Positions 8,068 through 10,610 of a stretch of 15,958 bases of DNA are shown one piece after another (positions within the stretch are counted from its first letter, which is position 1; each line of letters begins with the position of its first letter). This stretch comes from Chloroflexota bacterium (GTDB lineage: Bacteria > Chloroflexota > Anaerolineae > Ardenticatenales > Ardenticatenaceae). The stretch lies in contig DOUV01000971.1 of the NCBI GenBank assembly GCA_003520455.1, positions 1-15,958 of the forward strand, read 5' to 3'. The translations under genes were made by a program, and so were the position numbers. Under the pieces are notes generated by a model. The model saw nothing but the letters and a program-made list of their open reading frames with translations, was not told the DNA's origin and made no database searches.

Positions 8068-8385
8068 CTACCTGGACGGGAGGAAAACAGTGAAGATGCT
8101 ACCTTCCTCCTGGCGGCTCGTCACCTCCACCGTGCCTCCATGCAGGCCGATAATCTCTTTAACCAGGGAGAGACCCAACCCCAATCCCGGGCTGGGTCGG
8201 CCTGGGACAGTTTCGATCCGGTAGAAGCGGTTGAAGATCCGCTCCTGGTCCTCGGGAGCAATCCCAATCCCCTTGTCGGCGACGGCGACGGCGACCTGTT
8301 CGTCCCGCCGCTCGAGCCGCACGGTGATCGTTCCACCGTGCGGGCTGTACTTGATAGCGTGGGGCAATGCTTTGGAGCCGGGCAC
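8068..8385 (-). pseudogene. C-terminal remnant of a sensor histidine kinase (HATPase domain)
   Basis: The frame encodes about 100 residues of a HATPase_c domain: a partial N box (HAIKYSPHGG), the G1 box ADKGIGIAPEDQERIFNRFYR, the G2 box GLGLGLSLVKEI, and a normal end (GGTVEVTSRQEEGSIFTVFLP). A kinase needs at least a dimerisation/phospho-acceptor helix and the start of the ATP domain; here a TGA lies two codons upstream of the GTG at 8385, and none of the three frames beyond shows kinase sequence. The key N-box Asn, in the usual NAxKY, is His. It is therefore most likely an inactive fragment left by a deletion or rearrangement near 8386. The reading frame of what remains is intact, so decay is recent or the fragment is still used. 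Confidence 0.75.
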
Positions 8386-8668
8386 ATTTCATGCCAGAAG
8401 TCTTTTTGGTAGCTGTGATTGTACGGCTTTCAACCCGGCGTATCTACTCACTGCGCAGTTGAGCCGCCGGCCGCGGGCAATTGCCCCCTTCCCCGATCAC
8501 ACGCTCCTGAGCGAGTCAGGTGCGCCGCACCGCCTCCCGGCCGGGCGAGCAAGGGGTGCGCGTGTGGCTCAGCCGGTGTCTGGATCGCGAGCCAACCGCG
8601 AGCAGCGCTCTGCGGTTCGCTATACGGCCTGGCTCACTTTGGCTCACCTCGGGCGAAGTGAAGAAGAA
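8386..8668. other. gene-free stretch beside the kinase remnant
   Basis: No frame on either strand has a recognisable domain, and none is preceded by a good ribosome-binding site. Short inverted repeats occur, for example the 10-bp palindrome ACTGCGCAGT at 8450-8459 and AACCGC with GCGGTT in 8594-8617, but nothing ties them to a function. The stretch joins the truncated kinase to the palindromic element and is probably rearranged DNA. Confidence 0.35.
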
Positions 8669-8736
8669 CGATGTGTTCATATTTCTGTAAAAGTGGCGTG
8701 TACGCGCCACTTTTACAGAAAGTGAGATACACCATC
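8669..8736. mobile_element. 68-bp palindromic mini-element flanked by a 10-bp direct repeat (MITE-like)
   Basis: A perfect 17-bp inverted repeat (8682-8698 with 8705-8721) surrounds the 6-nt centre TGTACG. The arms continue outward as imperfect inverted repeats: GATGTGTTCATA on the left against GATGGTGTATCTCAC on the right. Immediately outside, the same 10 bases TGAAGAAGAA occur at 8659-8668 and 8737-8746 in direct orientation, as expected of a target-site duplication. It has no coding capacity. It looks like a miniature inverted-repeat element or the fused ends of a lost insertion sequence. The direct repeat is of simple GAA type, so coincidence cannot be excluded. Confidence 0.5.
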
Positions 8737-8844
8737 TGAAGAAGAAGGAGACGATCAAGTCGGAAAGCGACGCGGCCCCCTCCACGCCGCGCGAGCGCTG
8801 CGAACTTCCCTCGGGGCGACAACCACGGTTGGAGTACGAGGGCA

Positions 8845-8873
8845 TTGTCACACAGCGGACCTGGTACTATAAT
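8845..8873 (+). promoter_or_regulatory. strong sigma-70-type promoter of the nuclease-like gene and hpt
   Basis: The -35 box TTGTCA is at 8845-8850 and a perfect -10 box TATAAT at 8868-8873, with 17 bp between. Transcription would start near 8880, giving a leader of about 95 nt before the TTG start at 8975. Confidence 0.78.
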
Positions 8874-8974
8874 TCTTGTAGCATATACAGGACCGAATCC
8901 AAAACGCAAGGATAGTTCTGTCGGTTGTTGCCCTTCTAAAAGCAATCCAATCCGGCGAGAAGGGATGTTCTGGT

Positions 8975-9358
8975 TTGAGCGAAGTGCGAGACTCTCAGTC
9001 TACGTTTGCACATACCGCCGAAGAAGAGTTCGGGCGACTGCTTGACTATTATGGAATTGAGTGGCAGTACGAACCGCACACGTTCCCTCTGGCCTGGGAC
9101 AACGCAGGCAACGTTACCGAAGCCTTCGTCCCGGATTTCTACCTTCCCCAGCAGGATCTTTACATCGAGTTGACGACGTTGCGGCCGCGGCTCAACAGCC
9201 GCAAGAATCGCAAGATTCGACGCCTGAAAGAACTATATCCGGACGTGAACATCAAGCTTCTGAAACGGCGCGACTTGCGGGCACTCATGCTCAAATACGG
9301 CCTGGATCATGCGGCCGAAAAGATTCAAGGCTCAGAGGCGCAGAAGGGAGACACGTGA
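8975..9358 (+). CDS. small PD-(D/E)XK nuclease-like protein encoded ahead of hpt
   Basis: A 127-residue protein with the layout of a minimal restriction-endonuclease fold: an N-terminal helix with acidic residues (AEEEFGRLLDYYGIEW), then YEP, the strand AFVPDFYLP (D54), the strand LYIELTT (E65), a basic helix (SRKNRKIRRLKELYP) and a last strand NIKLLKRRD. The classical Lys after E-x is Thr here, and nearby Lys/Arg residues may substitute, so catalysis is uncertain. Similar proteins are, to my memory, often found in Chloroflexota and Actinobacteria. It uses a TTG start, 9 nt after GAAGGGA (8959-8965); a GTG three codons later is the alternative. Its stop overlaps the hpt start by 4 nt, so the two are translationally coupled. 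DNA or RNA cleavage is inferred from the fold only. Confidence 0.75.
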   Translation: MSEVRDSQSTFAHTAEEEFGRLLDYYGIEWQYEPHTFPLAWDNAGNVTEAFVPDFYLPQQDLYIELTTLRPRLNSRKNRKIRRLKELYPDVNIKLLKRRDLRALMLKYGLDHAAEKIQGSEAQKGDT

Positions 9359-9939
9359 AGGCATTGCCGCTGGAAGCGTACGAAGACTATCGAGCGACTA
9401 TTCGTGAGATCCTGATCTCATCCGAGCAAATCGAGCAGTGTGTCTCTGAGATCGGATGGGCCATCTCTCAGGACTACGCCGGGCGCATGCCGTTGTTGGT
9501 GGGCGTGCTCAAGGGAGTCGTCCCGTTCATGGCCGATCTCCTCAGAGCGATCACAATCGCAGTTGAGGTCGATTTCATGGCGATCTCCAGCTACTCGCCG
9601 GAGATGCGCCACCGCGGCGCCGTTCGGGTCGAGAAAGACCTGGAGACGTCCATCGCCGGTCGCCATGTTCTTTTCATCGAGGATGTGATCGATACCGGAC
9701 TGACCTTAAACTATCTGTTACGCAATCTCCGCGCGCGTGAACCGGCGAGCCTGGAAGTCTGCACGCTTTTCAATAAGCCCCACCACCGCTTGATCGATAT
9801 TCGGCTCAAATACAAGGGCTTCGATCTGCCCGATCGCTTTGTCGTCGGGTACGGCCTGGATTACCGCGAGAAGTACCGCAACCTCCCGTTTGTAGGACTC
9901 CTCGATCCGCAAGTACTGCAAGGTGGGACGAATAGTTGA
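9355..9939 (+). CDS. hpt: hypoxanthine phosphoribosyltransferase
   Basis: A 194-residue purine salvage enzyme that joins hypoxanthine or guanine to PRPP to give IMP or GMP in the cytoplasm. The PRPP-binding signature is VLFIEDVIDTGLTL, with E109-D110 and the phosphate loop VIDTG. The pyrophosphate loop LKG is at 52-54 and the flexible loop SSYSPEMRHRGAVRV starts at 78. The base-binding end FVVGYGLDYREKYRNLPFVG is complete. The GTG at 9355 lies in a GTGA overlap with the stop of the nuclease-like gene and follows GGGAG. Length and motifs are normal. It is the last gene of the two-gene unit and meets the leftward RNA locus at a shared hairpin. Confidence 0.95.
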   Translation: MKALPLEAYEDYRATIREILISSEQIEQCVSEIGWAISQDYAGRMPLLVGVLKGVVPFMADLLRAITIAVEVDFMAISSYSPEMRHRGAVRVEKDLETSIAGRHVLFIEDVIDTGLTLNYLLRNLRAREPASLEVCTLFNKPHHRLIDIRLKYKGFDLPDRFVVGYGLDYREKYRNLPFVGLLDPQVLQGGTNS

Positions 9940-10032
9940 GAAGCGACGCCCGGCATGGCGCAAAACGGTGCATTACACGTTCCGAAGTGCGACGCAGAGA
10001 CGTCCCCGTGCACTACCACTCCAACCCGGGCG

Positions 10033-10068
10033 AAAAGAAAACGCGCGCCCAGCACGAGCAGGCGCGCG
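10033..10068 (-). terminator. intrinsic terminator of the leftward RNA, possibly shared with hpt
   Basis: An 8-bp GC stem (10042-10049 with 10061-10068) has an 11-nt loop. Read leftward it is followed directly by TTTTCTTTT (10041-10033), a typical intrinsic terminator. Read rightward there is no T-run, so any effect on hpt would be weaker. Confidence 0.75.
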
Positions 10069-10432
10069 CTCCTCTCAAAAACGGGAGCCCCAACTAACCT
10101 TCCGGTTCTTCCACCGTTCCCCGAGCTTCCTCATCGAGCTGACTTGCCTGACGCTCATCAACTCAACGATCTGCTCGGTGGTCTCCCGCGGCTCCACTTT
10201 TCGAGCGTTCCACCTGTGTCTCTTCCGAAGAAGCTACACCTTATGGTACCCTGTCAAAGCTTCATCACCTTGGGAACCCGCTCGCTTTGGCCTCGTTCAA
10301 TCCTCTTTGAGTGGTTAACCCACCCAGAGTCCCAAATCTGGCCTCTGCGCCAATGGAATCGCCTTCCAATTTGTTGGGGCTTCCCTCCCCTTCAGAAAGT
10401 GGCCTCTATGCGAAGCCTCTTCCCTCCAGGCA
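10034..10432 (-). ncRNA. candidate structured non-coding RNA, about 400 nt, unknown family
   Basis: A near-consensus promoter on the minus strand and an intrinsic terminator bound about 400 nt that contain no credible protein gene; the best leftward frame is about 40 codons with no ribosome-binding site. The transcript can form many local hairpins: CUUC-UUCG-GAAG (10222-10233), AACC-GGAA-GGUU (10096-10107), a 6-bp stem with loop at 10309-10325, and UGGAA/UUCCA at 10354-10368, plus a long-range CCACCG/CGGUGG pair (10111-10116 with 10176-10181). UUCG and GNRA loops are hallmarks of stable RNA. The motif GAGGCCA occurs three times (10400-10406, 10339-10345, 10288-10294 in plus coordinates). I looked for the conserved cores of RNase P RNA, tmRNA, SRP RNA, 6S RNA and group I/II introns and saw none. 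Confidence 0.65.
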
Positions 10433-10437
10433 CTTGT

Positions 10438-10490
10438 ATCATACCTCACTTCGGACCCGATGTCAACATCCTCTATTTTGAATTTATAAT
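10438..10490 (-). promoter_or_regulatory. near-consensus promoter with A/T-rich upstream element, drives the leftward RNA
   Basis: On the minus strand the -35 box TTGACA (10461-10466) and -10 box TATGAT (10438-10443) are 17 bp apart. Just upstream, 10471-10490 is almost pure A/T and resembles the UP elements of rRNA promoters. It is the strongest promoter in the window, and it points into a region without a protein gene. Transcription should start near 10431. Confidence 0.8.
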
Positions 10491-10581
10491 GTGCGACATT
10501 TTATCGATATATTCCTTCATCATTGTGACGTTTTTTAACCGATTATAGGTACTGCACCGGCCAGCACCCGGAACCAGACGC

Positions 10582-10610
10582 TTGGCGATCCGCCGATGGT
10601 CCGCTAAAAT
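10582..10610 (+). promoter_or_regulatory. promoter of the M20 peptidase gene
   Basis: The -35 box TTGGCG (10582-10587) and -10 box TAAAAT (10605-10610) are separated by 17 bp. A start near 10617 gives a leader of about 25 nt that carries the AGGAG ribosome-binding site. Confidence 0.6.

What the first reader, a model, noticed from the sequence alone, without database searches (positions are those of the whole stretch)
10034..10490. Unrecognised, probably abundant structured RNA of about 400 nt on the minus strand
Seen: TTGACA-17 bp-TATGAT with an A/T-rich upstream element, pointing into about 400 nt without a credible gene and ending at a GC hairpin followed by TTTTCTTTT. The interior has UUCG- and GGAA-capped hairpins, further stems, and three copies of GAGGCCA. 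Known: such promoters are typical of stable-RNA genes, and UUCG/GNRA loops are common in folded RNAs. Inferred: a housekeeping-type or lineage-specific non-coding RNA. The signature cores of RNase P, tmRNA, SRP and 6S RNA were not found.
Basis: partly seen in the sequence, partly recalled or inferred. Interest (0 to 1): 0.8.

Follow-up and report, generated by a model that had tools for sequence, protein, structure and literature searches.

The report
New large structured RNA beside hpt
A folded RNA of about 355 letters with its own gene switch sits next to a purine-salvage gene in a Chloroflexota bacterium, has relatives in one class of that phylum and matches no RNA family on record, so it looks like a new RNA family whose job is still unknown.

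Summary
On the minus strand a TTGACA-17-TATGAT promoter (10466-10438) drives about 355 nt of non-coding, strongly folded RNA (z -7.9) ending in a U-tract. P1 is supported by covariation: 8 of 12 pairs change on both sides, 96.8% of cells pair, 0 of 500 shuffles reach this. Of 31 loci (window plus 30 found without using hpt) 22 are convergent with hpt; 8 have no hpt in the 2.7-3.1 kb held, so hpt control is unlikely to be the core function. No Rfam 15 family matches the RNA in the window or in 38 loci. RNase P, 6S and tmRNA lie elsewhere in 17, 15 and 17 of 18 genomes, 16 of which carry the RNA. A kink-turn-like element is kept in 6 of 7 members of the window's subgroup, but no L7Ae protein was found (0 of 18). 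Most likely a stable trans-acting structured RNA; the function is inferred and no transcript was seen.

The parts
10438..10466 (-). sigma-70-type promoter TTGACA-17-TATGAT of the RNA
   Evidence: a promoter with at least 10 of 12 bases lies within 120 nt upstream of P1 in 30 of 39 loci (1.5% of shuffled stretches)
10077..10432 (-). the structured RNA, about 355 nt; start about 6 nt after the -10 box is inferred, end at the U-tract
10388..10430 (-). 5' hairpin domain; by spacing absent in 11 of 39 loci where the -10 box lies 8-16 nt from P1
10373..10385 (-). helix P1, 5' strand (GGGAAGCCCCAAC)
   Evidence: covariation
10368..10371 (-). helix P1b, 5' strand AAUU (31 of 40 copies), paired with GGUU 10099-10096
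10364..10367 (-). GGAA, 5' side of the purine-rich internal loop (GGAA in 24 of 40 copies)
10188..10271 (-). kink-turn-like element: 10271-10254 (AAGGU-GAU-GA-A-GCUUUGA) with 10200-10188 (AAAGU-G-GA-GCCGC)
   Evidence: in register in 6 of 7 members of the window's subgroup; generic k-turn scan not above chance
10222..10233 (-). UUCG-capped hairpin inside the k-turn arm
   Evidence: the loop sequence differs in relatives
10100..10103 (-). GGAA, 3' side of the purine-rich internal loop (GGAA in 16, AGAA in 10 of 40 copies)
10083..10099 (-). GGUU of P1b (38 of 40 copies) and helix P1, 3' strand (GUUGGGGCUCCC)
   Evidence: covariation
10077..10081 (-). U-tract after P1; P1 plus U-tract probably form a terminator (inferred)
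   Evidence: TTTT within 20 nt after P1 in 30 of 40 copies
10033..10068 (-). separate GC hairpin with T-rich tail, between the RNA and hpt
9355..9939 (+). hpt, hypoxanthine phosphoribosyltransferase, convergent with the RNA
   Evidence: Pfam Pribosyltran E 3.8e-22; relatives so named

Best explanation
It is an independently transcribed, stable, non-coding RNA of about 355 nt, a member of an undescribed RNA family of one Chloroflexota class. Shown by sequence: a promoter of its own, a conserved long-range helix P1 that closes the RNA end to end, a strongly conserved P1b next to a purine-rich loop, a structured but fast-changing interior, mostly one match per genome, and kept gene order in many genomes. 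Inferred: it is transcribed and stable, and acts in trans as a folded particle. P1b with the loop beside it would be the recognition site (for a protein not yet known, or for another copy of the RNA), the interior arms would give shape or lineage-specific contacts, and P1 with the U-tract would also end transcription.
For: P1 and P2 covariation: 16 full-length RNAs, 8 of 19 pairs changed on both sides, 93.8% of cells paired against 88.0% shuffled, 0 of 500 as high, slid controls 32-56%; 40 copies, P1 with P1b, 8 of 12 pairs, 96.8% against 92.1%, 0 of 500, slid controls 25-58%. Fold z of P1-to-P1' below -3 in 37 of 40 and of the interior alone below -2 in 37 of 40; interior 124-368 nt. Promoter at least 10 of 12 in 30 of 39. 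One match per genome in 31 of 32 positive genomes (only 11 candidates per genome were scored). Place kept beside hpt in 22 of 31 loci although hpt there is only 53-78% identical to the window's, and no hpt in reach in 8 of 31, which argues for a function in trans.
Against: No transcript evidence was available. No partner was found: L7Ae 0 of 18, TROVE in 5 of 16 RNA-positive genomes. The purine loop is GGAA on both sides in only 12 of 40 copies and all-purine on both sides in 19 of 40. The interior cannot be aligned across the whole family, so most of its structure rests on energy alone, and two diverged copies have no significant fold (L095 z -1.4, L097 z -1.1). The 3' strands of the 40-copy alignment were placed partly by pairing score or by eye, which favours P1; the first 16 were aligned by sequence.
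Confidence: 0.57

Rival explanations
1. A cis-acting partner of hpt: convergent transcription or antisense pairing with the hpt 3' end tunes hpt expression or ends both transcripts.
For: 22 of 31 loci are convergent with hpt; in the 21 scored by script P1' ends 23-273 nt from the end of the hpt match; in L023 the P1 3' strand overlaps the end of the hpt frame; 11 of the 17 closest hpt loci of a 60-genome draw have the RNA there.
Against: 8 of 31 loci have no hpt in the 2.7-3.1 kb held and one has it on the other side, with the RNA core unchanged; antisense action would not need a conserved closing helix and folded interior.
Confidence: 0.16
2. A very divergent version of a known housekeeping RNA (RNase P, 6S, tmRNA, SRP).
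For: Size, strong promoter, class-wide and mostly single-match occurrence.
Against: No Rfam match to the RNA; RNase P elsewhere in 17 of 18 genomes (14 over cut-off), 6S in 15 of 18, tmRNA over cut-off in 17 of 18; in L085 an RNase P gene lies about 1.3 kb from the new RNA; ARAGORN finds no tmRNA in 38 loci.
Confidence: 0.02
3. Guide or scaffold RNA, or remnant, of a mobile or defence element.
For: A constant terminal domain with a variable interior resembles guide RNAs (recalled); one locus (L101) carries two tandem copies; the small protein 8975-9355 has weak matches to Phage_endo_I (E 0.004, below cut-off) and to PADLOC PDC-S69 (E 3.6e-5).
Against: 31 of 32 positive genomes have one match; no transposase or reverse transcriptase among the 10 window proteins scanned, and the other PADLOC matches are broad ATPase, HD and response-regulator domains; no match at 1e-5 in phage or plasmid records and only a chance match inside a coding gene in viral contigs.
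Confidence: 0.07
4. A catalytic RNA (ribozyme) acting on itself or another RNA.
For: Size, elaborate fold, conserved P1b and loop, k-turn-like arm in the subgroup.
Against: No ribozyme family of Rfam matches (the RNase P match in L085 is a separate gene); few positions are conserved outside P1, P1b and the loop.
Confidence: 0.1

Closest known systems
OLE RNA (ornate, large, extremophilic; Bacillota)
   Same: Large orphan structured RNA; OLE has a k-turn needed for function (passages of PMC9723947). The window's subgroup has a k-turn-like element in register in 6 of 7.
   Different: No Rfam match; OLE is about 600 nt (abstract); its k-turn binds YbxF/OapC, and no L7Ae-family (PF01248) protein was found in 18 genomes. 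That YbxF belongs to PF01248 is recalled.
GOLLD and ROOL RNAs
   Same: Large folded bacterial RNAs; cryo-EM shows RNA-only multimers (abstract of PMC12286853), a possible precedent for an RNA without a protein partner.
   Different: No Rfam match; no match in phage records at 1e-5; four exact patterns in viral contigs gave one chance match.
6S RNA, RNase P RNA, tmRNA
   Same: Stable fold and mostly one copy per genome.
   Different: Separate genes for each lie elsewhere in most of the same genomes.
Y RNA / YrlA with Ro60 (TROVE)
   Same: Ends joined by a conserved stem with an internal loop and a variable remainder (recalled, not from a call).
   Different: TROVE found in only 5 of 16 RNA-positive genomes.
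Chloroflexi-1 motif (RF01698)
   Same: Structured RNA candidate of the same phylum (passage of PMC2864571).
   Different: Listed there for Chloroflexus aggregans; its Rfam model does not match here.

Membership tests
RNase P RNA (RF00010) | Rfam model match | tested here: not met
   no match to the RNA in window or 38 loci; RNase P elsewhere in 17 of 18 genomes and beside the RNA, as a separate gene, in L085
6S RNA (RF00013) | Rfam model match | tested here: not met
   6S elsewhere in 15 of 18 genomes
tmRNA (RF00023) | tRNA-like domain and tag frame | tested here: not met
   ARAGORN none in window or in 38 loci; tmRNA elsewhere over cut-off in 17 of 18
bacterial SRP RNA | Rfam model match | tested here: not met
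   presence elsewhere in the genomes not tested
OLE RNA | Rfam model match | tested here: not met
OLE RNA | k-turn bound by an L7Ae-family protein | tested here: inconclusive
   k-turn-like element in 6 of 7 subgroup members, not above chance in a generic scan; PF01248 in 0 of 18 genomes while 7 of 14 control genomes ring
Y RNA | Ro60/Rsr (TROVE) partner in the genome | tested here: not met
   5 of 16 RNA-positive genomes
riboswitch or other 5' leader | lies just upstream of a gene on the same strand | tested here: not met
   the next gene is hpt on the opposite strand in the window and in 21 other loci of 31; the rest were not checked one by one, and in L038 a frame begins just behind the RNA on the same strand
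GOLLD/ROOL-type RNA-only particle | homo-multimer formation | not testable with these tools
   needs mass photometry or cryo-EM
protein-coding gene | conserved open frame | tested here: not met
   longest stop-free run per frame varies from 19 to 101 codons among 15 RNAs; the interior does not align across A2; no test of synonymous bias was run

The most novel reading that the evidence does not exclude
A new large RNA machine of one Chloroflexota class: an RNA of a few hundred nt whose two ends form a conserved core (P1, P1b and a purine-rich loop), working as a particle without an L7Ae-type partner, either as an RNA-only multimer like GOLLD, ROOL or OLE, or as an unrecognised ribozyme or RNP core.
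Probability: 0.33. Interest if true: 0.9.

Novelty: categorically new. Interest (0 to 1): 0.78.

Why it matters
Bacterial RNA families above 200 nt are few, and several are central machines (recalled). This one is found across a class, mostly once per genome, often in a kept gene order, keeps its core helix by compensatory change, and matches no family of Rfam 15. It gives a defined object (sequence, ends, promoter, core motif) for RNA-seq, knock-out and cryo-EM. 'Categorically new' is meant at the level of the RNA family: its general kind, large structured RNA of unknown function, has precedents (OLE, GOLLD, ROOL), and whether its mechanism is new is not known.

Tried and rejected
BLAST of the RNA in phage and plasmid records: nothing at 1e-5; only short matches at E<=5. 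Peptidase neighbour as bait in genome contigs: 14 loci, none with hpt, and model R1 finds no copy in the six nearest (L001-L006). BLAST of the RNA in 4 genomes at E<=10: short matches only. Phylum draw of 400: 4 genomes at E<=1e-3, three of them in the terminator part (query 361-393), one real (L023). Of the 18 matching genomes, three matches (L034, L040, L042) were rejected as chance after reading. R1 in 400 genomes of the phylum: 12 at E<=0.05, two clear (G376, G287), the other ten at 18-24 bits not pursued. Viral-contig patterns: none, none, one chance match in a coding gene, none. RNAalifold on the first 15 RNAs supports only P1 and P2. Generic k-turn scan over 16 RNAs: 8 with a hit against 9.0 expected (stems 3 and 3), 12 against 8.8 (4 and 2), 5 against 3.2 (4 and 3): not convincing alone, and the window's own element is not among the hits because of its wobble pairs. 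A competing local hairpin CCAA-GNAA-UUGG in the 5' strand of P1: 86.1% of cells paired against 84.4% shuffled, 21 of 500 shuffles as high, weaker than P1. Coding: rejected. Partners L7Ae and TROVE: not supported.

Rows left out of counts: further loci of a copy already counted (L027, L045, L046, L047, L059-L061, L065-L072, L075, L090, L092, L094); G476, whose two P1 strands lie on different contigs (L041, L073); G658 and G684, whose matches were not fetched. L085 was mis-scored by the script and added by eye. Five of the eight diverged hpt-linked copies were placed by eye, because the script's score did not clearly beat its controls or picked another place (L096, L098, L099, L104, L106). Offsets of six diverged copies were wrong and corrected; the counts given are from 91 onwards. 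Model R1 took a local hairpin as its 5 pairs and acts mainly as a sequence profile, so 32 of 396 is a lower bound.

Full report
What is in the window. On the minus strand a promoter TTGACA-17-TATGAT (10466-10438, 11 of 12 consensus bases) with an A/T-rich stretch behind it points into a non-coding stretch. The 355 nt from 10431 to 10077 fold with z -7.88, 0 of 100 shuffles as stable. In 96 tiles of 330 nt over both strands of the window z has mean -0.59, sd 1.43 and minimum -4.27; three cuts of the stretch give -5.2 to -8.8 on the minus and -2.0 to -4.0 on the plus strand. The ends pair with each other: GGGAAGCCCCAAC (10385-10373) with GUUGGGGCUCCC (10094-10083), followed by UUUUU (10081-10077). 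A separate GC hairpin with a T-rich tail follows (10068-10033), then hpt on the plus strand (ends 9939).

Known families. Rfam 15 at gathering score: nothing in the window; at E<=10 on 9950-10600 two chance matches. At E<=1 on all 38 homologous loci: tRNAs beside the RNA, an RNase P gene about 1.3 kb from the RNA in L085, and weak matches far below their gathering scores. ARAGORN finds no tRNA or tmRNA in the window.

Finding relatives. No whole genome is held for the window. BLAST of the RNA in 400 genomes drawn from the phylum gave one real match (L023, E 7.4e-5, 87% over query 39-74). It lies at the end of hpt, convergent with it, behind a TTGACT-17-TATGAT promoter: the anatomy and place of the window copy. 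The L023 RNA then matched 18 of 298 genomes of its class at E<=0.01, its own included; on reading, three matches are chance and the other 15 genomes hold the RNA or, in G476, parts of it. A model of the 5' part (R1, 14 sequences) matched 32 of 396 genomes of the class at E<=1e-3; in 29 of these both P1 strands were verified on one locus. Among 400 genomes of the phylum only G376 and G287 matched clearly; both are of that class. The tool names no class; the nearest hpt proteins with names are from Anaerolineae, Ardenticatenaceae or Chloroflexi bacteria. The order of G448, whose hpt is 78% identical to the window's, has the RNA in 3 of 4 genomes held.

Starting from hpt instead: of 60 genomes of the class 55 have an hpt-like gene at E<=1e-30. 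I scored the 30 loci fetched (L090-L119) and read 12 of them. Among the 17 closest hpt loci (L090-L106) the RNA lies convergent in 11: three typical (L090, L092, L094) and eight diverged (L095-L099, L101, L104, L106), five of these placed by eye. In G420 and G439 (L091, L093) it lies elsewhere (L037, L038). I saw none at L100, L102, L103 and L105; L107-L119 scored at most 18.0, within the range of the controls (up to 19.0). So at least 13 of the 60 have it; the loci of the other 25 genomes with hpt were not inspected.

Anatomy across the family: 40 copies in 39 loci (window; 30 loci from BLAST or R1; 8 loci from hpt, of which L101 has two tandem copies). P1 with P1b: 12 pairs, 8 with changes on both sides, 25 cells with such changes, 96.8% of cells paired against 92.1% in shuffles; 0 of 500 shuffles as high for four of five measures and 13 of 500 for the count of pair types; 25-58% paired when slid. 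On 16 full-length RNAs aligned by sequence: 19 pairs, 8 with two-sided change, 93.8% against 88.0% shuffled, 32-56% when slid. Against: pair 71/482 of that alignment is unpaired in 4 of 16 and 65/488 in 7 of 16. P1b reads AAUU in 31 and GGUU in 38 of 40. The 4x4 loop beside it is GGAA on the 5' side in 24 of 40, and GGAA (16) or AGAA (10) on the 3' side; both sides GGAA in 12 of 40, both sides all-purine in 19 of 40. The interior is 124-368 nt; its own z is below -2 in 37 of 40 (exceptions L030, L095, L097) and the z of the whole is below -3 in 37 of 40 (exceptions L077, L095, L097). TTTT follows P1 within 20 nt in 30 of 40. A promoter with at least 10 of 12 bases lies upstream in 30 of 39 loci, against 1.5% of shuffled stretches; L080, L082, L078 and L099 show none of 9 or better within 120 nt. 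In 11 of 39 the -10 box sits 8-16 nt from P1, leaving no room for a 5' hairpin; in most others it is 45-63 nt away.

A kink-turn-like element. In the window's subgroup the motif GGY-GAU-GA-A-GCUU with AAGY-G-GA-GCC occurs in register in window, L039, L044, L036, L032 and L038, with 2-3 of 3 C-stem and 4-5 of 5 NC-stem pairs; L037 fails (0 of 3). It agrees with the kink-turn consensus as I recall it. A generic scan is not above chance, so the case rests on the in-register conservation, and L032 and L036 are close relatives. An L7Ae-family protein, the usual partner, was found in 0 of 18 genomes while 7 of 14 control genomes rang.

What it is not. RNase P is present elsewhere in 17 of 18 genomes (14 over cut-off), 6S in 15 of 18, tmRNA over cut-off in 17 of 18. 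Of these 18, 16 carry the RNA (G476 in two pieces) and G412 and G495 do not; among the 16 the figures are 15, 13 and 15. TROVE is in 5 of 16 RNA-positive and 0 of 4 R1-negative genomes. In the window and in 21 further loci of 31 the next gene is hpt on the other strand, so it is not a leader there. It is no multi-copy repeat: 31 of 32 genomes give one match, though only 11 candidates per genome were scored.

How it most likely works. The promoter, the end-to-end helix and fold, and the RNA's presence in 8 of 31 loci without hpt in the 2.7-3.1 kb held favour a stable RNA acting in trans. P1b and the loop beside it look like a recognition site; the interior changes fast, as arms of a particle or lineage-specific contacts would. 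A role in cis on hpt is the main rival, because 22 of 31 loci are convergent with hpt (21 by script, L085 by eye). Neither is shown.

Literature. Searches for structured RNAs of Chloroflexi or Anaerolineae, for large ornate RNAs and for hpt-linked non-coding RNA listed no title or abstract that describes this RNA. I saw the listings, passages of PMC2864571 and PMC9723947, and the abstract and section list of PMC12286853. Most subscription papers are not in that library.

Noticed in passing
window 8682-8721: Two 20-nt arms, 95% complementary and directly abutting; the surrounding 8581-8910 folds with z about -4 on both strands.
   Followed up: partly
window 8068-8385 (-): HATPase_c domain on a 105-aa frame, looks like the end of a histidine kinase without its front part.
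   Followed up: no
window 8975-9355 (+): Small protein just before hpt with weak matches to Phage_endo_I (E 0.004, below cut-off) and PADLOC PDC-S69 (E 3.6e-5); similar-looking frames precede hpt in several relatives.
   Followed up: partly
L101: Two tandem copies of the RNA in one apparent transcription unit, behind a 5' hairpin and a TTGACA promoter.
   Followed up: partly
L038: RNA lies on the other side of the endonuclease-like gene and hpt, pointing away, as if that pair had been inverted.
   Followed up: no
L085 2843-3077: An RNase P RNA gene, cut by the end of the locus, lies about 1.3 kb from the new RNA.
   Followed up: no
window 10378-10367 (-) and relatives: The 5' strand of P1 can also form a local hairpin with a GNRA-like loop; the statistics are weaker than those of P1.
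   Followed up: yes
class of G376: Many genomes have two or more hpt-like genes; among the loci inspected the RNA was seen beside the type closest to the window's.
   Followed up: partly
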